From NCBI GenBank assembly GCA_025403435.1, contig CM046345.1, positions 310,001 through 374,000 of the forward strand: a stretch of 64,000 nucleotides of DNA. Direction: 5' to 3'. Within the stretch, counting starts at the first letter, position 1; each line of letters begins with the position of its first letter. A model generated the notes under the pieces. The model was given only the letters and a program-made list of their open reading frames with translations, was not told the origin of the DNA and made no database searches. Source of the stretch: Artocarpus heterophyllus (lineage: Eukaryota; Streptophyta; Magnoliopsida; Rosales; Moraceae). The position numbers and the translations under genes are program-made. Shown here in pieces: positions 11,408 through 45,200 of this stretch.

Positions 11408-13160
11408 GTGCCTAGAAAATCAACATTTGTTGATGCTATCATAATTTCTTGTCAGGATGGCAACCCTATAGAGCCTATCAAGAAGCAAAATAAAGAGGGA
11501 AACAACAATACAATTACAAAACATAAAGTTCATTTGTGTCAACCTCCAATACCCCAGAAGAAGGTTAACAAGCCTCCTCCACCAGTGAGTGCATTGAAGA
11601 CTTCAGCTGAACAAAATTCTGCGAGCTTTCCCTTCCCCGGTCACAACAGAGGACATGCTGCGCCGTCTTCATTAACTTGACTCATTGGTGTCAAGCCTTT
11701 TGTTCACGATTTACCAGAGCTTCCGGAGCTTGACAACCTCTTCTCTCCAGAAGGGCCAATTTTAGAGGCGCAACGAGAAGCAGCCGAGCTGTTTGGGGCA
11801 TCGGAAACATGGTTTCTATTCGGAGGTACCACGTGTCGAATCCAAGCAGCGATTATGGCAACTTGTTCACCGGTAGACGTTCTCATTCTCCCCCGGAATT
11901 GTCATTTATCAGCCGTGTCTGCCATGGTGTTATCTGGTGCAGTGCCCAAATACATCATCCCTGAGTACAATGTTGAATGGGATATTGCCGGTGTGGTCAT
12001 TCCATCACAGGCAAGTCTAGAAAAATGGTAGATAGTCATGCCAGTAATGACCAAATTTTTTACCTTGAAAGTCATGTTAGATTTGTATGAAACCAAACAA
12101 AATAAAAGGAGAATAATGTTAGATGCTTGTCTTTTCAGGTGGAGATGGCAATCCAGGAACTAGGGGTGGAAGGTCGAAAATCAGCCGCAGTTTTCATCAC
12201 TTCTCCTACTTACCATGGTATAGGTAGCAACTTGAGTGAGATATCTCAGCTGTGCCATTCTCATGGAGTTCCTCTAATTGTTGACGAGGCTCACAGGGCT
12301 CATCTTGGATTTAATCCCCATATGCCTAATTCAGAGCCTCAGCAGAGCGCAGATTTGGCTGTGCAATCAACTCACAAAGTTCTTTGCTCTCTCGTGCAAT
12401 CGTCAATGTACACATGTCTGGGCATCATGTCAATAGAGAGAATTTGTAGATGTCTTCAAACCCTTCAAAGCTCTAGTCCAAGTCATCTTCTTTTAGCGTC
12501 CTTAGATGCAGCTAGAATCAACTTAGTGAAAAACCCCGAACGCATTTTCGAAAAATCTCTGCAAATGGCTCTTGATGCTAAGAATACAATAAGAGGGCTT
12601 CCAGGCATTTCTTTGCTCGACTCTCAAGAGTTCCCTGAAATTCCCAGCAGTTGATCCCTTGAGACTTGCTATTGGTTTTGGACAGCTAGGTTTGTCTGGT
12701 TACGAAGTGGAAGAAATTTTGTACGAGGATCATGATGTTATCTGCAAACTCGTTGGAACTAGCTCTATTACTTTTGCATTTAACCTTGGAACTTGTAAGC
12801 AACATGCTGCGAGGCTAGTGTCGGGTGTCAAGCATGTAACAGTGTCCTCCGCGGCATCAACTTATAAGGGTGCAGCAAAGGAGGACTGCAGCGTTTCTGC
12901 ACCTTTTGCTGATTTTAAAACAAGCTTGATTCTGAGAGATACCTTTTTTTTAAGTAAATGGAGAGTGAGCATTGAAAACTGCCTTGGAGAGGTTTGTGGG
13001 GAGCTTTTATGTCCATATCCTCCAGGAATTCCAGTAATGATCCCTGGTGAGACGATTACTGAACGAGCCTTGGATTATCTCCTAGAGGCTAGGAGCAGGG
13101 CTATGATCAGCAGGGCTTCCGACCCCAGCTCTCTTCCATAGTTTGCAATGAACAGTCTAC
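11408..13160 (+). pseudogene. Orn/Lys/Arg decarboxylase family gene, decayed
   Basis: The translation matches the plant PLP-dependent Orn/Lys/Arg decarboxylase (class I, fold-type I) family. Seen in order are SFPFPGHNRGHAAPSS, the HDLPELPELDNLFSPEGPI block, the FGGTTCRIQAA cofactor-binding loop, VDEAHRAHLGF, and STHK, whose Lys (12376-12378) would bind PLP, followed by a C-terminal domain. Exon 1 ends at 12010 and exon 2 starts at 12139; the intron donor reads CAG|GCAAGT, so it is GC-AG or a mutated GT. Breaks: an in-frame TGA at 11678-11680; a frame change near 12640 so that the conserved block after it lies in another frame; a pair of local compensating shifts near 12405-12440; and a further shift near 13125. 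The conserved N-terminus before about 11565 is not recognisable. It is most likely a pseudogene; sequencing errors could mimic some breaks. Confidence 0.8.
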
Positions 13161-13779: not shown

Positions 13780-15575
13780 CTAGCTTGAGTCAGTGGTGGC
13801 TTTTGGATCATTGCTATGCATCTCCTTTGACAGACTTCCTTTTGCTCGCTTCTTTGCTGGTCGATTAATGGGATCGGAAACACAGGGAGGAGGTAGGCGT
13901 GGCATGCCAATCTGCAAGTGGGGAGATTCATCTGGTCCAGCCCATGCCATGGGACTCACTGCAGCAAACAAACAATGTCATTACTGCTGCACCATCGAAT
14001 TTGTTTGTTGCATGCGGAAAAAAGATACCATCATGTGTTATAGCAAAATATCTCCCAAAAAAAGGGATAAAAACACGTAGAAAATTGTTGACTTTGCACT
14101 CTGCATATTTGCTGTAATTGACCTGTAATCAAATTTCTTATAGTATTTTTTAGAGATCTACGGATCTTTGATAGTGCATTTGGTTTATGCAAATTTCTTA
14201 TATCAAAAGATCTCTACCAATATATATATATATATATATAAAGGGAAAAAAAGATTGTAGATGATTCATGATTGTTGACTTTACACCCTGCATTTTGGTG
14301 GTGCAGTTGATCAGTATTCCAATTTCTTAGTGTCCGACTTTCCATTGCTTATACATAAGCTGTCAAATTTATGTAGTGAAGTATTTAGCTTGTTATGTGC
14401 ATACCCAAATCAGGTTCAAGACGTCCAAGGCCATTGCAAGGTGCCAGCAAACGAGCAAGACGCTTCCTCACATAATTTTCCTGCAAGGGCTTTGGGATTT
14501 GGAACGAAAATTTTGACATGGTCACCCCTTTTGTTGCATACTCAGGATGTTCCGATAAATACCTAATGAAATCAAAAGCACGCATAAAAGGCTGGGACTG
14601 TCAAGAAATCATGAAAGAAAATTAAACTAACACCAAGTAATATGCTTCCAGGGACTTGAAGTCATTAGATGTACGCATACAATATCCAAGACCCACAAGT
14701 CATTAAGAGTGGGAGAGAGAGAGAGAGTTTGGCAAAGACGTACTTTTGGATCTCCACCATTGAGCGAAATCTCTTGCCTGATGGTGCAACATAATACCTG
14801 AAAACCAACGGAGGAGCAAATTTTCAAGAATTATAGTTGAACTGAAGATTTAGATACAAATGGTACAGAAAAGCAAGAATCTATAAAATGAGACAAGATT
14901 TGAGAAATAGTGATAGCAACAACAATCATCATTCATCATCTTGAAGCAAGAAAAGGGTTCATACACGTCTGCAAATTTGGTGCCTCCTTCACCTCTAATC
15001 CTCAGCAGCCGTTGCCACCCGGGAGGGGGCTGTGCAATATTAGGCTTATCAATCGCCCACAGCCTGCTGCCATCTTGAGAAATGTCAGCTGGATCATCAC
15101 ATGAGATATCTGGCCGCCACTCACGAGCAGTCTTGCAGTAAAAGGGCTGCTCCAGAATGTGCTCGCGTAACTCTTCATACTTCTCCTTTGTTGGGATGAG
15201 CCTCCATTTGAAACATCTTGCACACTGAACTGTAAAAGCTCCTACAGACGGCAAACCTCGGGGTGGTTGCTGGTTTGAGATGGGTAATCCTTGACGTCTT
15301 GGATGTTGGAATGGAGTAGAGGGTTCAGGGACAGGCACAAGCACGCCATTAGCTGCTGCGGGGTCATAAAGCACCAGCTGTTTAAAGGCATCACTAGATT
15401 GGCCATTTTCATCCTCTAAAGACTCGTCGTCTGAAGATGGCGACGGAGACGACAACGAAGAAACATCTGCGAACTCCTGAGAAGCGTTGTCTCCCTGACT
15501 TATGAAATTTGAGTCGAGGGAACCATTCCCCGTCATTGTAAATTTAAACGTTATTTTACGAGGATGAGGCAACAT
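13780..15575 (-). CDS. Methyl-CpG-binding-domain protein with CW zinc finger (MBD2/MBD4-like)
   Basis: A nuclear chromatin protein of the plant MBD class that pairs a CW-type zinc finger (histone H3 tail reader fold) with an MBD. Coding exons are 15575-14965, 14797-14744, 14562-14405 and 13958-13780, giving about 333 residues; all junctions are GT-AG and in phase. The N-terminal 110 residues are Ser- and acidic-rich. The CW domain lies at about residues 114-165 with QCARCFKWR (C118, C121, W124), FYC (C147) and ISCDDP (C159). The MBD follows at about 171-245 with RLWAIDKPNI, PPPGWQRLLRIRG and YYVAPSGKRFRS. A Lys/Arg-rich tail could be a nuclear localisation signal. The start at 15575 is the first ATG after a good acceptor at 15598; ATG 15537, in the same frame, is an alternative. 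Whether it binds methylated DNA cannot be read from sequence; several plant MBDs of this clade do not. Confidence 0.88.
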
Positions 15576-16862
15576 TGACAGGACAAATGTTGAAAAGCCT
15601 GCACACGAAACACCATTTAAAAAAAAAAAAGAAAAAAACTCATCACCACAACAAAAGCACATTTCTGTGCCATTTGAGCCAAAAGCATCCATCAATATAT
15701 CCTAAAAATGTTCCTCTCTAATTATCTGAGAATAGAAAGCGTTCCCAATAAAGATTGAAATTCCAACTTACTAACTGGGTTCTAAACTAGACAAGGTCCA
15801 AAATACAAACTTTACAACCTTTGGTTGATTTGGGATGCTGACGAACCATAGTAGATAGGAAGGGGGGCGAGTAAGTAAACTAAATTCTTGAAACTTTTTT
15901 CTCTAATCCCCTGAAAATACAAAATGCCTTCCCCTTAGAACTCCCATGCAAAATCTACACTTTTTCATGGGTATAAATTATAAATTTATCATCTTTTGTT
16001 CATTTGGCGATGACAGAGAAACAATACTAGAAAAATAAGGAAAAGAAAGTTAAATTCCAAAAAAATGTTCCTCTCTAATCAGCTGAAAATGCAAAAATTA
16101 TTTGCCCAATAACTCCAAAATTTATATTTCATCATCTATAGAATGTCATAACTTACAATCTTTTGTTCATCTGAGCTGGCAGATAAACTATTATCCCAGA
16201 ATCAAGAGAGAGAAAGAGAGCATCAGCTGAAATTACATGTTTTCCTCAAGAACCCCAAAATCCACAATTTTTCCATCTACAAAAGGTACAAATTTGCAAT
16301 CTTATGTTCACTAGATAGCAAAGAAACTATCGTCCAGGAATATATATATATATATATCGATACTGAAATTCCTAAAAATATTCCTCTCGAATCACCTGAA
16401 AAGACTTCTTCTTCTTCTTCTTCTTTGCCAAGAACTCCAAGACCTGGATTTTAACATATTATTCTCGTTTTTTAAAGGTAGGCAAAAACTTCTATACTTA
16501 GCATAGATCTAGCAAAGATACAACAAATCCGAGTTCGTAACTTCAATCAATTAATAAACTCCAAAAACAAAACAACAACAACAATAACATAAAACAATTT
16601 TGTATATTACGAACACAAAAGAAAAGAAGACTTTTTTACAATTACAAGAACAACGTTAGATTGGGAAGATTGGCGAACAACAGATCATACCTTTCTCCGA
16701 AGAAGATGAAACCGAAGATCGTCGTTTTCTTTTCTTCCTTTTTTTTTTCTTTGTCTTTCTTTCTTTTTTTGGTGCGAAATGGTTTTGTCAGTTTGAGAGC
16801 TTTTTCTCTTCTTCCATGGAAATTAAATTACAGACAGATCGAGAAAATAAGCAAGATGAAAA
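15576..16862 (-). other. 5' leader of the MBD gene: non-coding exon plus intron
   Basis: On the minus strand a GA-rich stretch ends with the donor GAGAAAG|GTATGATC (exon end 16691), and a good acceptor GTGTGCAG lies at 15602-15599 just upstream of the first ATG. This predicts a 5' UTR exon from near 16800 to 16691 and a 1.1 kb leader intron that holds AT and CTT microsatellites (near 16341-16357 and 16406-16424). Related short units starting 'ttcctctc(t/g)aat..ctgaaaa' recur near 15710, 15900, 16070 and 16380. The putative promoter is interrupted at 16863 by the Copia LTR. The exon is predicted from splice signals only. Confidence 0.5.
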
Positions 16863-21600: not shown

Positions 21601-21857
21601 TTATTTGGATTCGTAGAGAACATCAAGGATCAATGTATATACCAGAAGAGCAGTGGGAGTAAAATTTGTTTCCTAGTTCTATATGTGGATGACATTCTAC
21701 TTGCAACCAATGATAATGGTATGCTACTTGAGGTAAAACAATTCCTCACTAAAAACTTTGACATGAAGGATATGGGTGATGCATCCTTTGTTATAGGTAT
21801 TAAGATACACAAAGACAGATATAAAGACACTTTGGGTCTGTCTCAAGAGGCCTATAT
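18640..21857 (+). pseudogene. Copia gag-pol, 5' part (gag, protease, integrase, most of RT), broken
   Basis: The gag region (about 18640-19254) ends near a CCHC zinc knuckle, CFFCKKKRHMKKDC, at 19315-19356. The protease motif DSGST follows near 19457. The integrase part runs from the HH-type finger (LWHRRL near 19875, CVGC near 19970) through IDDYSRYMYLY and DRGGEYY to [10 protein letters not shown] near 20370. The RT part has IGCKWVYKTK near 21230, [11 protein letters not shown] near 21290, DVKMAFLNGELEEEVYIKQP near 21430 and YVDDILLA near 21683. In-frame stops (for example at 19252-19254, 19888-19890, 20287-20289 and 21568-21570) make it non-functional. The frame is cut at 21857 by the nested element and resumes at 31415. 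Confidence 0.93.
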
Positions 21858-24437
21858 TGTGACACTCATTATTTTCTTAATAGGTAATATGGTAATTAAA
21901 TTAATTATTAGTGTGCTAATTAAAATTTATTTCATCTAAAATCTATTTCATCTTATTTATTTCTACCTACTTTAAAATTTTTTAAAATTTTCTTATATCT
22001 ATTTAGTAAATTTATCGAAACGCTCTTGGAACATCAAATTAATTACTAAAATGTCATTTGGCATTATATGAACTAAAGTCTCTGAATGAGACATAATGCA
22101 CTTAATGCTTCACCTACTTGTTTCCCACTTCTCATTATTTTCCTTCTTCAATCGGGCCCTCCAACAAAGAAAATCATGCATTTATTTTCTTTTCTCAGTG
22201 CAACACTTATCTTTCCCTTCCTCCTTGAAATTTGTTCCTCTCATTCTCTTCTTCTTCTTCTTCTTTCTTCTGCTCTCTAAGCTTGAGAAACCCAGCTCCA
22301 TGTCGTTCAAAAGTTTCTATTGCTAAAGTTGAACTTGAGCTTTAATCTCTTGAATTGATGACTTAAAGTTTTCAATGAGATTTTAAGGTAAGATTTTAGA
22401 AAATTAATCTAGTCTTATCTACCATCTTTACTTTGAATTTACTCATTTATTTTGCTGCACAATTTAGATTTCATGGTTTTGAATGAAAAAGTTTGACATA
22501 AGCATGTTCTCACCCTTAATTGTAAGAAAGGCTAAAGATAAGGTTTGATAATGATTTTGATATAAAACTCATGAAAATATGTTTATTGTGATTATATAAT
22601 GCAAGCTGCATATTTTGGAATGGTTTTGTGATTTTGAACAAGGATAATATGTTTTGGGTTAAAGAAAAATTTGACATTCCATAAACTTTGTAATACCTAT
22701 ATGGGTAGTGGCTCTTTCTTAAAATTCTGGGATTAAATGAAAATGAATTTTGTAAATTGTTTTGAATATTTAAAAAGTAGACATTTTAACCTTTTTAACG
22801 AGCTATCATAAGCCTAAATCAGAGTTGTATTATATTTTCTATGAATTTTTTAATTTTTAAATTAGAAATTAGTAAACCTGCTAGTAACAATATACCACCC
22901 ATTTATGTTAAGTAAACCGCCTGTTAACTCGTGTGATGATTGTAGATAGCGAATCTATCATTTTTACAAAAGTATACAGTCAGTTTGCCATGGTATACTA
23001 GCTGTTAACCTGAACCAAAAACCTATCTTTGCTCACCACCTAATTCCTTAATGTCTTGCAACCTCTCAAATATTATCCTAAGTGATTGATGAATCTTATT
23101 AGGGACTAAAACATATAGATTACTTGTTTACATTTTATATTGTGTTAAGACAAAAATTGTTTACTGTGGTATTCAAAAGAGATTTGCATAAAAGCTTTAA
23201 TGACACACTAGTAAGATAAATTTATACATGATTTATTTATGACTGTGGTTGTATGTTATGCTTTAGTTTTAATTATCCTTATGCACGCCTTAGGATCAAG
23301 GGAGTGTGGAGCTAACGTTAATTGATTCTGAGATTGAAAGATTGTTGATAAGCTTGAAAGGTAGGGATTCTATTACTTATCTTTTGTGAGGTTTTTATGG
23401 AATTAAAATTGATGTTTTACCACAAGATATATATATATATCTATGTTGAACTGCTATTATATGAGTATCACATATAAAACTATGACATGGACTTGTCTTG
23501 TATTGTACGGCAAAGAACATAATAAATTGACGCATGTTGTTATAAATTGAGAAGCATGGTTAGAAAAACTGACTATAAATAATAATTGAATATAGAGAAA
23601 TGGTAAGACGTGAAGAGGGACGACAGTTACGTCCTTGGGCACGAAAACCCTAAAAGATAAAATAGGGGGAAGGTGATGACGCTTCCTTGGGTTGAAATTC
23701 TCAAAACACACTGTACAGGAATCAACTGGGTGAGGACTTGGGGCTTGATGTCCCCTCACCGAAACACCCTTGGAATGTTTAGAGGGTGATCAAGCGCGCC
23801 CATTTGGATTTCAATGAGTTGAGTGATACTCTATTGAACATGAGTACCTAAGAATAATGATGAACTGTAATATTTGTATATATGTATTTGTATGAAACTC
23901 GATAATGATTAACTATGGTATCTACGGAATATGATTATAATAAATCTCATAATCTAAATAATGATGAGTATTAACTAACCATGTAAGTTTTAATGTGGTA
24001 ATGATAAAAACCTAAAGATAAGTAATGGTTTTCTCCACTGAGCATATTGTCGCTCATTCCCTTATATTTTTATCTTTTCAAGACTCACTAAGTGTGAGGT
24101 GGCTACGAGAAAAATAATTGAGGAAGCTATATAGCTATATTACATTGGGACTGCTTCAATTGTTAAGAATGTTATTCATGATAATGTGAGCATCAATTGT
24201 TACTTTCTGTGACTGTATTAAAATGCGTTGATGGTTAAAATGATGATGACGATAGTTTATATTATTAAATTTAAGGTGCTGCATTAAACTGTGGTTTAAT
24301 TATCGTTTATATTATTATTTTTGATTTGAGAGTTTTCATTGAAGCCCCGGACAACTTTATTTTTAAGGTTTTACTTTTATTTCTGATTTTTATTTTAATT
24401 CATTAAAAACTGTTAACCCCAATATAGGGGCGTTATA
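21858..24437 (+). repeat. 5' LTR of the nested LARD-like element
   Basis: It starts TGTGACACTCATT and ends GGGGCGTTATA. Inside is a CT-rich leader-like block with (CTT)n near 22240-22265. The matching LTR at 28832 has the same layout. A block with CTGAGCATATTGTCGCTCATT near its 3' end also appears in altered form in the solo LTR at 1339-3411. Confidence 0.93.
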
Positions 24438-25719
24438 GAATTTTTGGTATCAAAGTCTAGGTTCGGTTAACCTAGGGAGTATAACACCACTTTAAAAAAA
24501 AATTTGTTTTTGAGATGGTTTTGAAGCTGAATTTTCATTGTCCTCATCAAAATGAACCTTCACATTGATTTATACAGTCTAGAAGGATGTAACATGGAAA
24601 GGCCCTAGAATAAAAATATTTACGGTTATATGAGTACGATAATTATATATAAGGAAAGTATTAATAGTTATGAGGGAATGATAGTTATATGGAATAGGTT
24701 TATAAGTAGAATGCTTATGAGAGATTCGTATAATATTAGGATCTATAAGCATATCTAATTCGTATAGAATGATGAGAAATTCGTGTAGAAACGAGGATTT
24801 AAGAGCCTTTTATCTCGTGAAAAACAATAAGAAATATAAGGCTTGATTTATTGATTTCAAAGTTTGGCATAGATGTGCCAAATTCTTTGTAATTGATTCA
24901 GACCTAAGTAATGATTATGTGTGGATTCAGTGGAGTACATAAGTGTCAATGACTTTTCTTGAAAGTTCTATTTACTTGAGGAATATGAGATAAGTTAGGA
25001 ATCTATGGTATTGAATCTTGAGTGAGATAAACGTTAGACTTTTGATCTATTGAGACTGTGTAAAGGTAAGAATGTATGAATTTCAATGTTGGAATATTTT
25101 GTTACGTACATTGTATTTAAGTGTATCAATGAATATTTATGCATAGATGCAATGTGAAAATGACCAATAGGAGTTTCTTTAAGTAAATCATAATATTTAA
25201 GGAACCTATAATAATTTTAGATAATTACGATAAAAGGTTTAACTTCTAGATGTTTAGATGTGAATCTTTTGGTTACCTAAGGTTTTGTTATATGAAGAAA
25301 TTAAATATTGTATAAGTGAAATTGTGGGGATTGTAGATGTTCCTAAGTAGTAACATCAAATGTCTTTGTTCATTGATATGGTCTATGTTGGAAGACGTAA
25401 ATCATATTGATTTCAAGATTGGTCACATTCTAAACCCTTGGTAGTAATGATAATGAATCCATTGATAGATGTTGAGTATTAGGGATAACATATAGGTGTA
25501 TGCATTGTTCAATAAGATTTTGATTAAAACTAATTATTTTAGTTGCTAGAAGATTATGTTGTTATGAAATGATTTTAAATACCATTCAGGAATATTCCTG
25601 ATTGTCGTTAAATTAGACTTGTTCGTAGTTAATTTTATCTTTAGTGGGCTTTGAATTGGGTTTAAGATCTGTACAAATTGGTTTTCAATTTTATGTTTAT
25701 TATTTAACTCGTTATAAAT
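24438..25719 (+). other. Non-coding internal region of the LARD-like element
   Basis: After the primer-binding site this 1.3 kb stretch is AT-rich, with frequent stops in all frames and no retroviral motif. It may hold packaging and dimerisation signals of the element, but none can be shown from sequence. Confidence 0.5.
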
Positions 25720-26055
25720 GTGTTAAGGCCCAAAAAAACTTAATCCATTTCAACTTAACATTGGGGCCTAGTCCAAATCCTAAATTAGTTTGATTCACAC
25801 TGTCTCTCCCACGTGTCCTCTATACGTGTCATCTATAATGGTTTAATCATTGTTTACATATACGTCTACTGTGTATACGAGCTTGTTTCTCTGAGCTTAC
25901 TTTCTCTCTCTTAATTTGTTATTCTCTCTCTAAATCTCAAATCCTCTTCTTTCTCTCTAGAAATTCTTCTCTCTAAAAGAAGAAGGAATTCTAGGATTTT
26001 ACAACTTACTATCTTAATTTTTCCTTTCTATTTACTTTTGTTTTTTCATCTCATC
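25720..26055 (+). promoter_or_regulatory. Promoter- and leader-like block before the Cys-rich ORF, inside the LARD-like element
   Basis: Composition changes here from featureless AT-rich DNA to a stretch that resembles a plant gene's upstream region. It has GGCCC motifs (about 25729 and 25766), a CACGTG G-box near 25810, two further ACGTGTC-like cores, then a strongly pyrimidine-rich CT(C/T)TCTCT leader (25890-25980) running up to the ATG at 26056. A captured gene would bring such a block along with its promoter or 5' UTR. Transcription from it is inference. Confidence 0.35.
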
Positions 26056-26499
26056 ATGGACCCAAAGTACTAACACCTGAGAAAGTATTTCCTATCACTC
26101 TCCCAAAAGATTCTCAGAAAGAAATACAATGCTAGAATCACTCGGTTGTGGATTCTTATGCGTTTTGGCATCTCTTGTGATGCGAGAATGTTGATAAAGG
26201 GAAAGATTCATTCGAGTGACTTCAGTCAAGATGTCGATTTACCAGGAACGGGTACCAATTGTAGTGCAATGAAAAGAAGAGCCCGTACCATCGCGGTCAC
26301 TTATAACAAATGTGGAAGACAAAATTGTAACGGTAAATGTACTTCACCTGGTTATATGTCTACGAATAGAGAGGATAAAATAAGGTTTTGCAGGGATGGA
26401 CTTTCAAAGAAGAACTTCGATAGCATCCATCCTCCTCTTCATGGTCACCCTAGTGGATATGTTAAAGGAGCTATTTTTAAACTCTGGCCTAAATTTTAG
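26056..26499 (+). pseudogene. Cys-rich basic protein remnant, resembling plant-virus nucleic-acid-binding proteins
   Basis: From ATG 26056 to TAG 26497-26499 there are 148 codons with a single in-frame stop at codon 6 (26071-26073). The rest is open. The middle has an Arg/Lys-rich run (KRRAR near 26275) followed at once by a Cys cluster of spacing C-x4-C-x3-C (about 26311-26340), then a further Cys and a His-rich tail (near 26430-26450). A GTG...KRRAR block followed by Cys residues is the layout I know from the small zinc-finger nucleic-acid-binding and silencing-suppressor proteins at the 3' end of carlavirus and vitivirus (Betaflexiviridae) genomes. The similarity is by eye and short, so this is a lead, not an identification. 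A host zinc-finger protein or chance are the alternatives. No restored form is proposed. Confidence 0.4.
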
Positions 26500-27220
26500 G
26501 CAGAAAAACAACGCCTTCGAAATATGGTATTTCTAGATCCTATTTGCCAAGACATAAGAAAACTGGATGGGGAATAAGTCATCGCTCTATAAAGGTTGTT
26601 TAGTCTTTGCTTATTTGAAACAATTTCAGTTGATGTTCAACAGTTTACGTTTTTCTTTTACTCAGAATATTTGCCTTTGAGTTCGAAATAATTATGATTA
26701 TTAGATTGATACAATAAGTGTTTGTATCTCATTTAATTTATGGTTGTCTTTAATGTATATATAATAAAATATATTATCTTATCAGACACGTCACATATGG
26801 TACAGTAACATGTTTGAATTTTGAAAACTTATCCAGATATTTCAAGATTTGTGTCTCAAATTTCAAAAGTTCTACAGTATTTATCGTTTATATTGAATTT
26901 CTAAACTCGATGTATATTTGTCAAAAGGTCTACAGTTGTGTCAAGAAGGTCTTCTGTCAAACCATTCTCAATTGTGAAAAGGTATACCATTAGAGTCTAA
27001 TTTTTTTTCAAAAAGTGAATTAGATTTTCTGTAAACTATCAATCACCTTATCTTATTTTCTTACCCGCGTAAGATTTTGTTTAAATCTTTGGATTACCTT
27101 TTCATTTTCTACTTGTCTATCTCTTTAGTCCATTTTGCATATTCCTCATCCTTAAAATCTCATGTAGAACCCGAAGTCTGAGTGGAGCAGACATAAAGCA
27201 ATCACTTATATAAACCAAAT
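26500..27220 (+). other. Spacer between the Cys-rich and LOG-like remnants
   Basis: About 0.7 kb without a recognisable gene. The last 80 bases before the LOG-like ATG contain ACTTATATAAACC (about 27204-27216), a fair TATA-like box but only a few bases from the ATG, so it could equally be leader sequence. Confidence 0.4.
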
Positions 27221-27870
27221 ATGGCTACCTCTCGGTCCACCAAGAAAATAAAGAATGTCTGTGTCTTTTGTGGTTCTAGCCTTAGAAAAGATAAAGCCTA
27301 TGTAGAAGCTGCAAAACACTTAAGGTAAGTCCTAACACGCAAGAAGATTAACATAATCTATGGGGGTGGTAGTATAAAAATGATGGAAAATATGACGCTA
27401 GCAGCTAGGTCTAGTGACGCCACAGCTGTAGGGATTTGGTCTCATATTCTAGCTGAAAGAAACCTTTATAAGGAAACCATAGGTAAGGAAAAAGGAGTCA
27501 AGAGCATCTGAGAAATTTTTAAGCCATAATCAATAATTCTGATGCTTTTATAGCATTACCTGGTGGTCTAGGTACTCTTGAGGAAATATTCGTAGTTGCT
27601 TGTGAGCAATTATTGGGCTTTCATTCCAAACCCTTGGGATTACTGAATGTAAATGATTTTTATGATAGTCTTTTGAAATTTCTAGATTACGCTGTAGAAG
27701 AAAACATCATTGCAGAATCGGAGAGACAAATCTTTGTTACTACTTCAACAGTTGAGGAATTGATAGATAAGATGCAAATCATACATCTGAAATCCGACAC
27801 TACAACATCCAAGCTTGAATGGGAATGGGAAGGCCGGGAGCAGCCAATTGATTTGAATCTCCATCGGTAA
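27221..27870 (+). pseudogene. Intronless LOG-family (cytokinin riboside monophosphate phosphoribohydrolase) gene, decayed
   Basis: LOG enzymes release active cytokinin bases from nucleotide precursors. This 650-base stretch spans a whole LOG: KNVCVFCGSS at the N-terminus, then YGGGSIKMM (nucleotide loop), ALPGGLGTLEEI (the catalytic PGGxGTxxE signature, about 27560-27590), GLLNVNDFYDSLL and a normal-length C-terminus ending at TAA 27868-27870. Breaks: an in-frame TAA where the family has a residue between AAKHLR and VLTRKK (near 27325), a TGA near 27510 and a one-base frame change between there and 27530, hitting the segment that normally carries the catalytic Arg. Plant LOG genes have several introns; none is present here, which fits a reverse-transcribed copy captured by the element, or a non-plant origin. 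I am confident of the family and fairly confident it is inactive. Confidence 0.85.
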
Positions 27871-28831
27871 TCTTTTGGTTTTATTTATGGCATATAGGCA
27901 TGTGTGTCCGTATTTCGTGTGTCACGAATAACCGTTTACCTTGCATTATGTATTTCTTGTGGTATGCCGTTGTTCAATCTTTTAGATTCATTGAGCCTAA
28001 TGCCAGGATGATTGGATACAGAGTGCTTGATGCTCTCGAAATGCATCCTACTTAAGGTCTGATCTTTTATTTATCGATGTTTTTGTATTCTCCAAGCATG
28101 CCTGATATGGATAGCTGAATATGCAGAGTACCTTATACTCTCGAAACGTATCCGTATCATGTTTGTAATGTGTAATATTCTGTTAATATTATGTGGAAGT
28201 ACCAAAGTCAGTTATGGGGATATTCCATATGAAATATGAGTATATTATTTAGGTTAAATGTTAGTGTCATGAGGATAGCTGTTTAATGAAAAATATATCA
28301 GGTTTGTCTGCAACTACGAGATTCCATCTAATATCTCTATGAATAAGTTTAATGTATAGTTTTGAGTAGAAGTATTTGTATTATATGTTTTATGATTATG
28401 TTTTAGTTTATTAGTTGAAATATAAAAATCAACTATCCTTGACTTTCTCTTACTCAAAAAGAAAAGGAAACCAAAAATAAAGTATGTAGAAGTTTTCGAA
28501 CAATATCCTGAATGTAATTGTAAATCACAGTTCAAGGATAGTGAAGGACTGAAAAATGGTATGATTAGCATGTGTATTCTCTGATCAAAATGTTAAACCA
28601 TAATACGGTGTTGTGAATTTGGAACAAGTCGAAAATACTTTTGTTGAAGTATTTAGTATTGAAGTAAGGTTAATACTCCAAGCAAATGAAGGGAGATACA
28701 ATAACTCACACTTAGGGACAAACAACATTGACGGTTTAGAGTCAGAAGTGGATATCATTACGAAATTGTAATTCTTACTAGTATTGTTAGATTTGAAATT
28801 CAAGGATGAAATTTTTTTAAGGGGGTAGAGT
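27871..28831 (+). other. 3' internal region and polypurine tract of the LARD-like element
   Basis: No gene is identified. A short open stretch near 28440-28580 reads Lys-rich then ECNCKSQ, but it has no start or family match. The purine tract at 28819-28830 sits against the 3' LTR. Confidence 0.5.
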
Positions 28832-31414
28832 TGTGGCACCCATTATTTTTTTAATAGGTAATATGATAATTAAATTAATTATTAGTGTGCTAACTAAAAT
28901 TTATTTCATCTAAAATCTATTTCATCCTATTTATTTCTACCTACTTTAAAATTTTCTAAAATTTTCTTATATCTATTTAATAAATTTACTGAAACGCTCT
29001 TGGAACATCAAATTAATTACGAAAATGTCATTTGGCATTATATGAACTAAAGTCTCCGAAGGAGACATAATGCACTTAATGCTTCACCTACTTGTTTCCC
29101 ACTTCCTATTGTTTTCCTTATTCAATCGGGCCCTCCAACAAAGAAAACCATGCATTCGTTTTCTTTTCTCAGTGCAACACTTATCTTTCCCTTCCTCCTT
29201 GAAATGTGTTCCTCAAATTCTCTTCTTCTTCTTCTTCTTCTTTCTTCTGCTCTCTAAGCCTGAGAAACCCAGCTCCATGTCATTCAAAAGTCTCTATTGC
29301 TAAAGTTGAACTTGAGCTTTAATCTCTTGAATTGATGACTTAAAGTTTTCAATGAGATTTTAAGGTAAGATTTTAGAAAATTAATCTAGTCTTATCTACC
29401 ATGTTTACTTTGAATTTGCTCATTTATTATGCTACACAATTTAGATTTCATGGTTTTGAATGAAAAAGTTTGACATAAGCATGTTTTCACCCTTATTTGT
29501 AAGAAAGACTAAAGATATGGTTTGATGATGATTTTGGTATAAAACTCATGAAAATATGTTTGTTGTGATTATATAATGCAAACTTCATATTTTGGAATGG
29601 TTTTGTGATTTTGAACAAGGATAATTGTTTTGGGTTAAAGAAAAATTTGACATTCCATAAATTTTGTAATACCTATATGGACAGTGGCTCTTTCTTAAAA
29701 TTTTGGGATTAAATGAAAATGAATTTTGTAAATTGGTTTGAATATTTTAAAAGTAGACATTCTAAGCTTTTTAACGAACTATCATAAGCCTAAATCAGAG
29801 TTGTATTCTATTTTCTATGAATTTTTTAATTTTTGGATTGAAAATTAGTAAACCTGCTAGTAACAATATATCGCCCGTTTATGTTAAGTAAACCACCTGT
29901 TAACCTGTGTGATGATTGTAGATAGTGAATCTATCCTTTGTGCAAAAGTATACAGTCAGTTTGTCACGGTATACCAGCTGCTAACCTGAACCAAGAACCC
30001 ATCTTTGCTCACCACCTAATTCCTTAATGTCTTGCAACCTCTCAAATATTATCCTAAGTGATTGATGAATCTTATTCGGGACTAAAACATATAGATTACT
30101 TGTTTATATTTTATATTGTGTTAAGACAAAAACTGTTTACTGTGGTATTCAAAAAATATTTGCATAAAAGCTTTAATGGCACACTAGTAAGATAAATTTA
30201 CACATGATTTATTTATGACTGTGGTTGTATGTTATGCTTTAGTTTTAATTATCCTTATGCACGCCTTAGGATCAAGGGAGTGTTGAGCTAACGTTAATTG
30301 ATTCTGAGATTGAAAGATTGTTGATAAGCTTGAAAGGTAGAGATTTTATTACTTATCTTTTGTGAGGTTTTTATGGAATTAAAATTGATTGTTTTACCAC
30401 AAAATATAGATATATATCTATGTTGAACTGCTATTATATGAGTATCACATATGAAACTATGACATGGACTCGTCTTGTATTGTACGGCAAAGAACATAAT
30501 GAATTGATGCATGTTATTATAAATTGAGAAACATGGTTAGGAAAACTGATTATAAATAATAATTAAATATAGAGAAATAGTAAGACGTGAAGAGGGGCGG
30601 CAGTTACGTCTTTGGGCACGAATACCCTAAAAGGTAAAATTGGGGGAATGTGATGACGTTTCTTTGGGTTGAAAGTCTCAGAACACACTATACGAGAATC
30701 AACTTTGTGAGGACTCGGGGCTTGATGTCCCCTCACCAGAACACCCTTGGAATGTTTAGAGCGTGATCAAGCGCGCCCATTTAGGTTTCGATGAGTTGAG
30801 TGATACTTTATTGAATGTGGGTACCTAGAAATAATGATGAACTGTAATATTTGTATATATATATATATGTATGAAACTTGGTACTGATTAACTATGGTAT
30901 TTACGGAATATGATTGTAATAAATCTCATAATCTGGATAATGATGAGTATTAACTAACCATCTAGGTTTTAATGTGGTAATGATAAAAACCTAAAGGTGA
31001 GTAATGGTTTTCTCTACTGAGCATATTGTCGCTCATTCCCTTATATTTTTATCTTTTCAGGACTCACAAGTGTAAGGTGGCTATGAGAAAAATAGTTGAG
31101 GAAGCTATGTAGCTATATTACATTGGGACTTCTTCAATTGTTAAGAATGTTCTTCATGATAATGTAAGCATCAATTGTTACTTTCTGTGACTGTATTAAA
31201 ATGCATTAAGGATTAAAATGATGATGACAACAGTTTATATTATTAAATTTAAGGTGCTACATTAAACTGTGGTTTAATTGTCGTTTATATTTTATTTTTA
31301 ATTTGAGAGTTTTCATTGAAGCCTCTGGCAACTTTATTTTAAAGGTTTTACTTTTATTTCTGATTTTTATTTTAATTCATTAAAAACTGTTAACTCCCAT
31401 ATAGGGGCGTTATA
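28832..31414 (+). repeat. 3' LTR of the nested LARD-like element
   Basis: 2583 bp, starting TGTGGCACCCATT and ending GGGGCGTTATA, nearly colinear with 21858-24437. It is followed by the TSD copy TATAT and by the resumed Copia RT frame. Confidence 0.93.
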
Positions 31415-32224
31415 TATATCAACAAAGTTTTGGAGAAATTTTGGATGAAAAATTGTTCACCAAATATAGCTCCCATTGTGAAGGGTGACAGATTCAATTT
31501 GAATCAGTGCCCAAAAAATGACCTTGAAAGAGAACAGATGCACAACATTCCATATGCTTCAGCTGTTGGAAGTCTTATGTATGCTCAAGTTTGCACAAGG
31601 CCTGACATTGCATTTGCTGTAGGAATGTTAGGCATATATCAGAGTGATACAGGATCAGACCACTAGAAGGCTGCAAAGAAGGTGATGAGGTACCTGCAAG
31701 GAACAAAAGATTACATGCTTATGTACAGACGGACTGATAATTTGGAAGTCATTGGCTACTCTGACTCTAACTTTGCTGGCTGCATTGATTCACGAAAATC
31801 AACTTCCAGATACATTTTCATGCTAGCTGGTGGAGCCATTTTATGGAGGTGTGCCAAGCAAACTTTGACTGCTACTTCCACTATGGAGGCTGAGTTCGTA
31901 TCTTGTTTTGAGGCTACCTTACATAGTGTATGGATCAAGAGTTTCATTTCTGGGCTTAGAATTGTGGATTCTATCTCTAGGCCATTGAGGATATTCTATG
32001 ACAATTCAGTTGCTGTTTTTATGGCTAGAAACAACAAGAGCGGTAGTCGAAGCAAACACATCGACATTAAGTATCTAGCCATAAGAGAGCGTGTTAAGGA
32101 TAAAGTAGTTATCATTGAACACATAAGCACTGAATTGATAATTGCCGATCTCTTGACTAAAGGCATGCCACCAGTAAAATTTAGGAATCATGTAGATAGA
32201 ATGAGACTTGGTTCCCTTATGTAA
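31415..32224 (+). pseudogene. Copia pol, 3' part (end of RT, RNase H)
   Basis: The Copia frame interrupted at 21857 resumes here with INKVLEKF. Seen next are ASAVGSLMYA and TRPDIAFAVG, an in-frame TAG near 31663, then RNase H motifs: GYSDSNFAGC (near 31755), TATSTMEAEF (near 31873), YDNSVAVFMA (near 31998) and SKHIDIKY, ending at TAA 32222-32224. The D-E-D catalytic pattern of Copia RNase H is visible. The join confirms that the nested element split a single gene. Confidence 0.93.
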
Positions 32225-36170: not shown

Positions 36171-37171
36171 ATGGAAGGAAACAAAGAAGACGACGTAAGA
36201 AAAGGGCCTTGGAAGGCTGAGGAAGATGAAGTACTAATTAACCATGTCAACAAGTATGGTCCTAGAGACTGGAGCTCCATTCGATCCAAAGGCCTTCTTC
36301 AGCGAACCGGAAAGTCTTGCCGTCTCCGATGGGTCAATAAGCTTAGACCAAACTTGAAGAAGTAGGATCAGGATCATTTTTTCTATATATTTTCAAATTG
36401 CTATATGAAAAACATGTAAAAATCTAACATGGGTTTTTCCCTAGTGGCTGCAAATTTTCGCTCGAGGAGGAGAGGGTGGTAATAGAGTTGCAGGCACAAT
36501 TTGGGAACAAGTGGGCGAGAATTGCAACGTACCTGCCCGGGAGAACCGACAACGATGTCAAGAATTTTTGGAGTAGCAGGCAGAAGAGGCTAGCTAGGAT
36601 TCTGCACACATCTTCAACTCCTTCCAAATCACATAAAAACAAAAGGCCAATTCCTGCTACTCCGCATAATGAAGGAGAATCATCATCAACTGTACTCTCA
36701 TGCACGTCATCTTTGAAAGACAACTCCGAGATAAAAATGGTGTCGCTGCCGGATCTTGTCAACCCAAAACTGCTTAATTTTGAGCAAGATCTTGGACAAG
36801 CATTGTTCAACCATGCTACCCAGAAGAATCAGAATCCATGCATTGACCCGCAACCATTAAACCTAAATCCTTTCCCTCCAGTATTACAATCCCAATCTGA
36901 CCTCAAATTTCCATCAGAAGAAAGCCCTGACTTTATAACCAAGCTTAATGACCCTGACTTTGATATGTTTGGATCCCTGGAGGCTTCAAAACTTGGAAAT
37001 GGAGCAGAAGAACTTCTGTTCGACATACCTCCATTTCTCGAACCAGTGGAAAAGCCAATGTTTAATGATTCCAGTAGTACTATCCCTGACAGCTTCTTCG
37101 ATGACTTCCCCGTCGACATGTTGGACCAAATTGAGTCGCTTCCTAGCCCCCCACCACCACCAGAGCCGTGA
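36171..37171 (+). CDS. DUO1: R2R3-MYB transcription factor, DUO POLLEN 1-like
   Basis: DUO1 drives male germ-cell division and sperm differentiation in flowering plants. Exons are 36171-36361 and 36445-37171 (AA|GTAGGA donor, CCCTAG acceptor), giving 305 residues, close to Arabidopsis DUO1 at just under 300. R2 has Trp at 14, 34 and 54 with the usual spacing; R3 has Phe68 in place of the first Trp, then W87 and W106. The R2 block GPWKAEEDEVLINHV, GLLQRTGKSCRLRWVNKLRP and the R3 block PGRTDNDVKNFWSSRQKRL are diagnostic for the DUO1 group rather than other R2R3-MYBs. The C-terminal half is Ser/Pro-rich with acidic patches (DIPPFLEP, SFFDDFPVDM), plausible as the transactivation region. A miR159-like site lies in R2. 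It is transcribed towards the convergent TOM7 gene. Confidence 0.93.
36270..36290 (+). promoter_or_regulatory. miR159 target-like site in the DUO1 coding sequence
   Basis: The 21 bases beginning TGGAGCTCCATTCG pair with the well-known plant miR159 with three differences, one of them a G:U. They encode DWSSIRSK in the R2 repeat. Arabidopsis DUO1 carries a miR159 site at this place. Cleavage here is inferred, not shown. Confidence 0.75.
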
Positions 37172-42190: not shown

Positions 42191-42220
42191 GAGTAAAAGG
42201 GCAGGATTCCCACCATTACC

Positions 42221-45200
42221 ATGGATTACAAGAGTAACAGTTGGATATGGGGTGGTGTGTACAACTTCCTGCACCCTTTCAGCGGTCTAATGCTCACAGC
42301 GGCTTTGTTGGGGCTGTCCACAAGCTACTTTGGTGGAATAGGGGTTCCCCATGTGCCGTTCTTGTGGTCCGATTTGGGAATTCTCTATAAGAAGCGCGAG
42401 AAGAAGCGTATTCGTGTCTACATGGATGGCTGTTTTGATCTCATGCACTACGGTCATGCCAATGCCTTGAGGCAAGCCAAGGCTTTGGGCGATGAGTTGG
42501 TCGTCGGGGTTGTTAGTGATGAGGAGATCATTGCCAACAAGGGTCCACCTGTTTTGTCCATGGAAGAGAGGTTGGTGCTTATGGCATGGATTTCTTGAAT
42601 TCCTTGTCTAATTTTGATTCAAATCACACATGTTAAGAAACGTTTGAGTTGCTTTGAAGCTTTATCTCACTTTTCTCTGTACAAGCTTATGTAAACACAA
42701 TTGCAATAGATGCACTTTTGAGATAGAGTTATAGCTTGGGGATGTGGTTTGGTGATTGTTTTACTATTTCCCTTGCTTAGACGGTTAAACCCTTGATTGG
42801 TCTTACTCAGTTGCTATATTTTGGCTACTATGAGAGTTTTGTGCAGCTGTATGTGATAAGGATGATCATTTACGTGCACGATAACCAAGTATCTTTTGAA
42901 CTAATTTTGAAGTTCTCTCTAGGCTGGCTCTTGTTACTGGGTTGAAATGGGTGGATGAAGTCATAGCCAATGCTCCTTATGCAATTACCGAGCAGTTCAT
43001 GAATAGACTCTTTAATGAGCATAAGATTGACTACATCATACATGGCGATGATCCTTGCCTACTTCCAGATGGAACTGACGCTTATGCGTTAGCAAAAAGA
43101 GCTGGCCGCTACAAGCAGATTAAACGCACAGAAGGTGTCTCCAGCGCAGATATTGTAGGTATGATGCTTCTCTCAATCTCTCTCACAGCCATGATTTTTT
43201 TGTTATTACTAGTTAGTTGAGAAAGTTAAAGCACTCTTTGTGCATGTGATTAAATATATTGCTCTATTAGCCAAACGTTGCGTGTTAAGAATCTAACTCT
43301 TCTTATAATAATTACATTTATGTAGGACGGATACTTTCCTCTACGAAAGATAAGAAAGCATTCGAAGATCATAATGGGACATCGTTGAAAGGAGATCATA
43401 AAGAACGTGGATCCAAGGGTGCCCATTTATCTCAATTTCTAATGACATCCCAGAGAATTGTGCAATTCTCTAACGGAAAGGTGTGTTTTAAATATCCATT
43501 AGTTATAACACAGTATTTATGAGCAACGTATCAAACTATTTCATCTATAGCCTTGTGTATAACAACAAAAAAAGAGGTCTAATTCATTCACATATTAAAG
43601 GAAGTTGAAGAAGCTGCTGTTCTCCCAAGATCAAGATCAATGCTGCTGCTTCTATTTCACCATGTTCTTTGTAGTCATGGTTATTTATAAGATACATGTG
43701 TATGGGGTCTGCCATTTTCACTTTCGTATTATTATATTATTTGTCTAAGTGGGAAGATACATCATCCTTTCGAACAGACAGCCGTCTACTATCAAAAAAA
43801 TAATCACATAATTTATAGTTGCACATTTTTGTATATTCACATATCAATTAAGCTTTTCTCACCATGTTCTTTGTAGTCACGGTTATCTGTAAGATCCATG
43901 TGTATATAGTCTACCATTTTCACTTTTGTATTAGTTGCATTATTTGTTTAAATGGGACAACTACATCATCCTTTCGAATAGACAGCTATCTGGTATCACA
44001 CGAACAATCATATAATTTATAGTTGCGAATTTTGCATAGTCACATGTCAATTTGGCTAAACGTTTCTTCACAAGATCTTACCTTAAACTTTTATGTATTA
44101 AGGTATAAAGTTAAAAATCTTCACTAATTCATTATCATTTTTTTTCTTAAATTTTTTGTGTGTTTTTTATTTTATTTTATTGCATTTTTAATTGTGTTTC
44201 CCCTTATTGTTAACATTAACCACATCAAAATTTAGGCACCTGGACCGAGTGCTCGTGTAGTGTATATTGATGGAGCATTTGATCTTTTTCATGCAGGACA
44301 TGTTGAGGTACAATTTCTCATTTGTTGCTGTTAGCATCTTATTCATTGCCTTTTCTTCTTGTTTCATTTGTTGTCTTGTAATCACTTCCAAAATTGAGTC
44401 TTTGTTCACTTGGAAACTTGGAGCCTAGGTTGTTATTACACGCAACAAGTGTTTGTGTATTTCCATTTTGTGGTTCCATCTTGTCCTATCGTTTATTTGA
44501 TCTAACCCTTTGCTTGCTCAGATCCTGAAGAATGCTAGGCAGCTTGGAGACTTTCTACTAGTCGGCATCCATGATGACCACACTGTGAGGTATTTCCATA
44601 TCGTTCCCCTTGATTTGAAACCATTTCGTCATTGGTGTGCTTAAGTTACGGAGTTTCTTCAACATAAAATCTGAAGTTTTTATGTCCAAGTGAACCAGTG
44701 AAAACATTTAAAGATGCGAATGGTTAATCAATTCATGATATTGCGTGCAGTGAACACAGAGGGAAGCACTACCCAATTATGCATTTACACGAACGAAGCC
44801 TTAGTGTGCTGGCTTGCCGCTATGTTGATGATGTAATCATTGGTGCTCCCTGGGAAGCTACAAAGGATGTGGTGAGTGATTATACTTTTAACTCCGTAGT
44901 GTACTGGCTTTCCCATGTTATCTAGTTATAACTCTTGGCAAACTTGTGTCCCATTACTACTAAAACATCCATGTGTTCATTAGCTGGTTTTTTGTCCTAC
45001 ATAATTTTTTGGCGTGGGTTTTAGAGTTGCCATTATTGTTTGCAAGGCTAAGGCCTCTCTTTTGTTTATTGCAGATAACTACATTCAACATTTCTTTGGT
45101 TCTGCACGGGATAGTTTCCGAGAGCAACTCTCCGTCAACGGCAAGCCGGAAGTTTCTTTCACTTATGATACTCACCATTACAGTCCACTTTAGTAATAGA

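What the first reader, a model, noticed from the sequence alone, without database searches (positions are those of the whole stretch)
21858..31414. A gag-pol-less LTR element carrying a cytokinin-activating LOG gene and a virus-like Cys-rich gene
The LTRs, PBS, PPT and a perfect TATAT duplication define a complete mobile unit of 9.56 kb, yet the interior has no retroviral gene. It has instead two unrelated coding remnants. A LOG enzyme could raise local cytokinin; the Cys-rich basic protein resembles nucleic-acid-binding or silencing-suppressor proteins of plant RNA viruses. Mobile cargo of growth-hormone activation plus possible silencing suppression would be a striking package, if intact relatives exist. 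In this copy both genes are broken.
Basis: partly seen in the sequence, partly recalled or inferred. Interest (0 to 1): 0.88.

Follow-up and report, generated by a model that had tools for sequence, protein, structure and literature searches.

The report
Gag-pol-less retrotransposon with two accessory genes
A plant jumping element that has lost the usual retrotransposon genes still exists in many copies while keeping two other genes, one resembling a zinc-finger protein of plant RNA viruses and one derived from a hormone-activating enzyme, which suggests that it lives by these accessory genes and by borrowed machinery.

Summary
The window holds a 9.56-kb LTR element (LTRs 93.9% identical, TATAT duplications) inside a Copia element, with no gag-pol detected and a broken Cys-rich gene (CRP) and LOG gene. 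It is a decayed copy of a family with many copies. Of 20 further copies fetched, 20 carry CRP and 17 LOG, in the same order and strand. A young copy has LTRs with 0 mismatches in 1,966 sites and both genes open. At least 150 places in the genome encode CRP without stops and at least 150 a LOG printed as 100% identical to one reference. A divergent locus has both genes open (dN/dS 0.16 and 0.28). CRP relatives pass the cut-offs of viral nucleic-acid-binding profiles; this family's own tested copies do not. LOG has lost the catalytic arginine in 15 of 17 copies, so cytokinin activation is unlikely. LOG in Citrus and Populus Gypsy elements is published; I found no report of the CRP or the pair, but one key paper could not be read. 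Silencing suppression and trans-mobilisation are inferred; no autonomous partner was found.

The parts
21853..21857 (.). target-site duplication TATAT, left
21858..24437 (+). 5' LTR (TGTGACAC...GCGTTATA)
24445..24457 (+). primer binding site, TGGTATCAAAGTC; the young copy L030 reads TGGTATCAGAGC, initiator-Met type (label recalled)
   Evidence: sequence
24438..25700 (+). non-coding leader; its first 1,001 bases are 93-95% identical in the 39 other scored genome copies
26056..26577 (+). Cys-rich basic protein gene (CRP), 173 codons in intact relatives; here in-frame stops at 26071 and 26497
27221..27870 (+). intronless LOG-derived gene, 216 codons in intact relatives; here stops and a frame change
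28819..28829 (+). polypurine tract
   Evidence: sequence
28832..31414 (+). 3' LTR
31415..31419 (.). target-site duplication TATAT, right

Best explanation
This is a decayed copy of a non-autonomous LTR retrotransposon family with many copies, some of them very recent. It has lost gag and pol and must be moved by proteins of another element (inferred). It keeps, as a two-gene module, (1) a small basic zinc-finger-like protein related to viral nucleic-acid-binding proteins of the carlavirus kind and (2) an intronless, LOG-derived Rossmann-type protein. Most likely mechanism: the Cys-rich protein binds nucleic acid and promotes the element's expression or survival, by countering silencing or acting as a transcription factor as its viral counterparts do; this is inferred. 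The LOG-derived protein in this family is probably no longer a cytokinin-activating enzyme and is kept for another role, such as nucleotide or partner binding (inferred). The module was probably inherited from Ty3/gypsy elements in which it sits downstream of gag or pol (inferred from L001 and L032).
For: Structure. No gag-pol detected; the young copy L030 has no other + strand open frame of 90 aa or more inside the element (one of 127 aa antisense to LOG). Family: the leader gives 2,705 first-look candidates, 40 scored, the 39 others at 93-95%; CRP in 20 of 20 and LOG in 17 of 20 fetched copies. Activity: L030 LTRs 0 mismatches in 1,966 sites, TSD ACTAC. Intact genes: 150 scored CRP places of 5,428 candidates, none with a stop; 150 scored LOG places of 6,120 candidates printed as 100% identical to P0002. 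These lists are capped and best-first, so they are lower bounds on intact copies, not fractions. Selection: L030 against L031, CRP dN/dS 0.16, pN/pS 0.27 (0.18-0.40); LOG 0.28, 0.40 (0.30-0.51); shared variants less often non-synonymous than private ones, CRP p 0.018 (19 copies), LOG p 0.084 (17 copies); CRP of L030 against three old copies 0.34-0.38, among those old copies 0.69-0.99. Origin: CRP follows a frame with H2C2 and rve integrase domains in L001; gag frames lie upstream of CRP and LOG in L032; LOGs of L032, L031 and this family form one clade, 100/99. Viral likeness: 12 of 16 aligned members match Carla_C4 and 8 of 16 Viral_NABP at E 0.01, best 1.9e-7; 0 of 10 reversed or shuffled controls match either.
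Against: No autonomous partner was identified. This genome's own CRP copies do not reach the Viral_NABP profile directly: 0 matches among 117 candidates, and 0 in the 14 control genomes, so the tool calls the answer inconclusive; L030's CRP has no Pfam hit at 0.01; P0001 scores 0.0032 and 0.03, below both cut-offs. In the control, 4 of 7 reversed sequences matched an unrelated family (Stress-antifung, best 1.9e-4, below its cut-off), so E-values near 1e-3 mean little here. The ORFs are not better conserved at nucleotide level than the leader. Window-against-P0001 differences are not depleted at conserved columns (6 of 16, P 0.65), nor are window-against-P0002 differences (15 of 42, P 0.20). 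The LOG within-family test is not significant (p 0.084). L031's vehicle is unresolved and L032's gag is tied to the module by position only, so part of the measured constraint could come from another kind of element or a host locus. Intact genes in a recent burst need not mean function.
Confidence: 0.8

Rival explanations
1. The two genes are passive passengers: an ancestral element captured them once, and a single recent master copy amplified them without any function.
For: The 150 scored LOG places are all printed as identical to one reference, as in a burst from one master. ORFs are no better conserved than the leader at nucleotide level. LOG within-family test p 0.084.
Against: dN/dS 0.16 and 0.28 between L030 and L031 with both genes open in each. 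The module recurs in L031 and L032 and, as the end of a CRP joined to a LOG domain in one gene model, in Citrus (P0150). CRP shared/private contrast p 0.018.
Confidence: 0.2
2. The LOG-derived protein is an active cytokinin-activating enzyme and the element raises local cytokinin.
For: The motif PGGxGTxxE is kept in the window copy, in P0002 and in most rows (changed in L020, L022 and L025, gapped in L023). Arg is kept in 2 of 17 copies (L011, L023) and, read by eye, in L031 and L032.
Against: The residue matching CgLOG Arg99 (proposed catalytic, PMC4979012 passages) is Asn in 15 of 17 copies and in P0002; the Trp129 position is also lost in P0002 and the window, and Lys100, which most of the clade lacks too (18 Lys among 118 other rows). 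P0002 departs at 30 of 90 clade-conserved columns; the highest of the other clade members is 15 of 93. NCBIfam LOG equivalog score 85.6 against a cut-off of 300 (a model for prokaryotes).
Confidence: 0.1
3. The CRP is a plant or retrotransposon protein that resembles viral zinc-finger proteins only by convergence of a basic stretch and a Cys motif.
For: Direct profile search of this genome found nothing; the viral matches cover only about 27 to 92 residues around the basic and Cys core.
Against: Relatives exceed the curated cut-offs of two viral families (P0122 22.6 bits, P0124 31.7, P0126 30.1 and 25.5, P0134 22.7, L001 34.2, L031 23.6); 0 of 10 controls match.
Confidence: 0.3

Closest known systems
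LOG/YgdH domain in plant Gypsy LTR retrotransposons (Citrus sinensis, C. clementina, and Populus trichocarpa without the n5 filter; PMC9289625 section 12, citing Steinbauerova et al. 2011)
   Same: LOG domain inside Gypsy-type elements; in my tree the window's LOG groups with LOGs of Populus, Reevesia and others apart from canonical LOGs (rows are the best hits to the query only)
   Different: Those consensuses were found through reverse transcriptase, so they had pol; here gag-pol is gone, LOG is paired with CRP and mostly lacks the catalytic Arg. Steinbauerova 2011 was not held
Carlavirus Cys-rich proteins and viral nucleic-acid-binding proteins (Pfam PF01623, PF05515)
   Same: basic KRRAR-type stretch followed by a Cys motif; relatives pass the curated cut-offs
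   Different: encoded by a retroelement; about 173-185 aa, with a conserved C-terminal part (GLSK...HPSGYV) extending beyond the matched core; Cys spacing C-x2-C-x4-C-x3-C in L030, against C-x2-C-x9-C-x4-C in PVH (PMC3689765 passages)
Non-autonomous LTR elements without gag-pol (LARD-type; label recalled)
   Same: LTRs, PBS, PPT, TSD, no gag-pol detected, many copies
   Different: carries two protein-coding genes with signs of constraint
Additional ORFs (aORF/eORF) of plant LTR retrotransposons (PMC7264820 part 1 of 3; PMC6317226 and PMC11728184 passages)
   Same: extra sense ORFs in Ty3/gypsy elements; PMC11728184 suggests a silencing-related role for Tekay aORFs on structural grounds
   Different: here the extra ORFs outlive gag-pol; their identity is CRP plus LOG

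Membership tests
non-autonomous LTR retrotransposon | paired LTRs with target-site duplication | tested here: met
   window and L030; the script found matching 5-mers in 3 of the 12 other usable pairs (L016, L021, L023), the rest having untrimmed ends
non-autonomous LTR retrotransposon | PBS and PPT beside the LTRs | tested here: met
   window and L030, sequence
non-autonomous LTR retrotransposon | no gag-pol | tested here: met
   (7 inputs, 0 hits, + strand only)
non-autonomous LTR retrotransposon | moved by an autonomous partner | not tested
   no partner identified
Carla_C4 / Viral_NABP protein family | profile score above the curated cut-off | tested here: inconclusive
   met by relatives P0122, P0124, P0126, P0134, L001, L031; not met by the window frame, P0001, P0123 or L030 nor in the genome search
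Carla_C4 / Viral_NABP protein family | nucleic-acid binding | not testable with these tools
   needs purified protein
LOG cytokinin phosphoribohydrolase | LOG family by profile | tested here: met
   PF03641 4.6e-24 for the window piece; TIGR00730 130.4 bits for P0002, cut-off 96.35
LOG cytokinin phosphoribohydrolase | catalytic Arg and Glu | tested here: not met
   Glu kept in P0002 and the window; Arg is Asn in 15 of 17 copies and in P0002; Arg kept in L011, L023, L031, L032
Ty3/gypsy Tekay or Athila lineage | RT/RH/INT phylogeny | not testable with these tools
   no pol in the window element; its ends look Tekay-like and the L001 pol Athila-like (both recalled)

The most novel reading that the evidence does not exclude
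A retrotransposon family has discarded its whole replication machinery and persists in many copies because it encodes two host-acting proteins, a virus-like nucleic-acid-binding protein that relieves silencing or reprograms transcription and a repurposed LOG pseudoenzyme, while its movement is borrowed. It would be a satellite that lives by manipulating the host cell and not by copying itself.
Probability: 0.35. Interest if true: 0.92.

Novelty: new variant of a known kind. Interest (0 to 1): 0.8.

Why it matters
Elements without gag-pol are usually taken to survive on cis signals alone (general knowledge). Here two protein genes stayed open, with signs of constraint, while gag-pol was lost, which makes it testable what accessory proteins do for a retroelement. 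One of them links Cys-rich proteins of plant RNA viruses, some of which suppress silencing or act as a transcription factor (PMC3689765 passages), to retrotransposons, so gene traffic between RNA viruses and retroelements becomes testable in either direction.

Tried and rejected
Rejected: one-off capture (CRP in 20 of 20, LOG in 17 of 20 copies). Rejected: independent insertions of the two genes, because of the shared layout; the direct-repeat test (11 bp or more) was too coarse to decide. Rejected: LOG as an active enzyme in the main subfamily. Led nowhere: viral contigs with P0001, P0002 and A2, no relatives; phages with P0001, none; PDB with the CRP profile, nothing better than 0.42; tRNA and Rfam scans of the window, none; no structure could be predicted. 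LTR-age rows: 22 examined, 7 without a usable pair (L013, L015, L017-L020, L028), and L012 and L014 dropped because the repeat pair found is not the family's LTRs, leaving 13. L031's flanks gave no clear LTRs. An earlier count said 18 of 20 for LOG; the count is 17 of 20. The 20 copies are the first 20 other places of the 40 listed, so they are chosen by similarity to the window's leader.
Full report
What is there. The window carries an LTR element at 21858-31414 with 2.58-kb LTRs that are 93.9% identical (K2P 0.064; about 2.1 to 4.6 million years at recalled rates of 1.5e-8 to 7e-9) and TATAT duplications. It lies inside a Copia element whose reading frame is restored across the empty site. 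Both LTRs of this copy end in TA, whereas the 3' LTRs of L016, L021, L023, L024 and L030 end in CA. No Pfam family was found in seven + strand frames of the interior outside the two genes.

The two genes. The Cys-rich frame (CRP) begins at 26056 and has two in-frame stops; LOG begins at 27221 and has stops and a frame change. One protein in the database, P0001, is 86% identical to the window's CRP over 80% of the query; it lacks the first 28 residues of the frame and is open past the window's second stop. A profile search with the two gave 31 proteins at E 10 or better, 18 of them with the precomputed Pfam label Carla_C4, and one Citrus gene model (P0150) that joins the end of a CRP to a LOG domain in the order seen here. 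For LOG the closest protein, P0002, is intact and 80% identical; the other 119 of the 120 listed (4,724 found) are 40-48% identical and include several entries each of Populus, Reevesia and Xanthoceras.

The family in its own genome. The genome search answered: assembly of 985 Mb, window at C19:310001-374000; the leader has 2,705 first-look candidates, of which 40 were scored, the 39 others at 93-95%. Of 20 further copies fetched, all 20 carry CRP sequence and 17 carry LOG, in the same order and strand; LTR sequence was found on both sides in 13 of the 20 stretches, on one side in the others. Among full-length regions, excluding the window, a stop-free stretch of at least 160 aa is present in 8 of 18 for CRP and of at least 200 aa in 8 of 16 for LOG. 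P0001 finds 150 scored places of 5,428 candidates, none with a stop, at 96-98% identity; P0002 finds 150 scored places of 6,120 candidates, printed as 100% identical. These lists are capped and ranked best first, so they show that at least that many intact genes exist, not which fraction is intact. On contig C7, 4 of 6 listed CRP places have a listed LOG 1.1-1.3 kb away on the same strand.

A young copy. L030 (C5) has LTRs with 0 mismatches over 1,966 sites and one gap, a TSD ACTAC, PBS TGGTATCAGAGC, a PPT, CRP of 173 and LOG of 216 codons open, and no other + strand frame of 90 aa or more inside the element. LTR K2P over 13 usable copies of 22 examined runs from 0 to 0.076. So copies of quite different ages exist, one of them very young.

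Selection. L031, a divergent locus in the same genome, has both genes open. Against L030, CRP is 74% identical with dN/dS 0.16 (pN/pS 0.27, bootstrap 0.18-0.40) and LOG 62% with 0.28 (0.40, 0.30-0.51). Within the family, variants shared by copies are less often non-synonymous than private ones: CRP 39 N to 25 S against 68 N to 18 S, p 0.018; LOG 73 to 46 against 73 to 27, p 0.084. CRP of L030 against L010, L011 and L027 gives 0.34-0.38 while those three among themselves give 0.69-0.99; LOG of L027 against L030 gives 0.52. Against the foreign L001 the window CRP gives pN/pS 0.52 (0.41-0.64) with dS near saturation. Differences between the window and P0001 are not depleted at conserved columns (6 of 16), nor those between the window and P0002 (15 of 42). 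At nucleotide level the ORFs are no better conserved than the leader.

Where the module came from. In L001, a 3.3-kb contig filed under a bacterial MAG but looking like a plant retroelement, CRP starts about 200 nt after a frame with Integrase_H2C2 and rve, on the same strand; no LOG match (three LOG queries) lies in the roughly 980 nt that follow. In L032, of this genome, two frames with Retrotrans_gag and further open frames without Pfam hits precede a broken CRP and an open LOG; the L001 pol had no tblastn match there at 1e-3, and LTRs tying gag to the module were not found. LOGs of L032, L031 and this family form one clade (100/99) in that order. The simplest series is a Ty3/gypsy element that gained the genes and then lost pol and finally gag; it is an inference, because L031's vehicle is unclear and the lineages of L001 and of the window's ends differ by recalled signatures (Athila-like against Tekay-like). 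The best L001-CRP matches in this genome are only 51-52% identical (150 scored of 5,265), so no closer L001-type CRP was seen here.

What the proteins may do. Of 16 CRP rows, 12 match Carla_C4 and 8 Viral_NABP at E 0.01, best 1.9e-7; of 10 reversed or shuffled controls none match either, though 4 of 7 reversed ones match an unrelated family below its cut-off. Members of this genome's family are weaker: no hit for the window or L030, P0001 at 0.0032, and no hit in a genome-wide profile search whose control genomes were also silent. Homology therefore rests on a chain of relatives. Carlavirus CRPs are reported to suppress silencing (PVH, PVM), while CVB p12 did not suppress local silencing but acts as a transcription factor that causes hyperplasia (PMC3689765 passages). 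The window's LOG belongs to a clade of 107 rows apart from the 12 canonical ones in the tree (SH-aLRT 96 and 99; the rows are the best hits to the query). CgLOG residues Arg99 and Glu122 are proposed as catalytic, and changing active-site residues to Ala nearly abolished activity, S19A excepted (PMC4979012 passages). The Arg is Asn in P0002 and in 15 of 17 copies, Arg in L011, L023, L031 and L032. P0002 departs from the clade at 30 of 90 conserved columns against at most 15 of 93 for other members, and the window shares 19 of these 30 changes. The LOG is thus better read as a pseudoenzyme in most of this family.

Print. LOG (YgdH) in Gypsy consensuses of two Citrus species and, with a looser filter, Populus is published (PMC9289625, section 12 read). 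Additional ORFs are well known (PMC7264820 part 1 of 3; passages of PMC6317226, PMC11963269, PMC11728184). Endogenous betaflexivirus replicase sequence is known from cucumber (PMC3136472 passages). My ten answered searches (some listings were cut) listed no paper whose title or abstract start reports a carlavirus-type CRP in LTR elements or the CRP-LOG pair; Steinbauerova et al. 2011 was not held and could contain it.

Verdict. The function of the CRP and the way the family is moved remain inferred.

Noticed in passing
L001:2345-2410 and protein P0130: tblastn of P0130 aligns to L001 1901-2410, past the CRP stop of L001; P0130's frame runs on there. A possible read-through or older longer form.
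   Followed up: no
G000 C9:16537152-16564376: Five LOG copies printed as identical to P0002, spaced about 6.65 kb apart on one strand, as in a tandem array of LTR-plus-interior units.
   Followed up: no
own genome: Tomato LOG3 finds 150 scored places of 5,731 candidates at 44-52% identity, many as single frames of 200-260 aa without stops: probably several more intronless LOG families besides this one.
   Followed up: partly
proteins P0003, P0004 (Xanthoceras): Gene models with two LOG domains in a row.
   Followed up: no
window 57428-62496: A second Copia-type element with short LTRs (57428-57656 and 62258-62496) and RVT_2 at 61076-61744.
   Followed up: partly
L016 and L021 (both contig C21): Same layout, same tail duplication and same TSD CACCC: probably one insertion duplicated with its surroundings.
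   Followed up: no
L015, L018, L028: Internal partial duplications of LOG.
   Followed up: no
window 12106-13138, 14850-15701, 36428-37168, 42197-42595: Host gene pieces: Orn/Lys/Arg decarboxylase, CW-type zinc finger, MYB, cytidylyltransferase.
   Followed up: no
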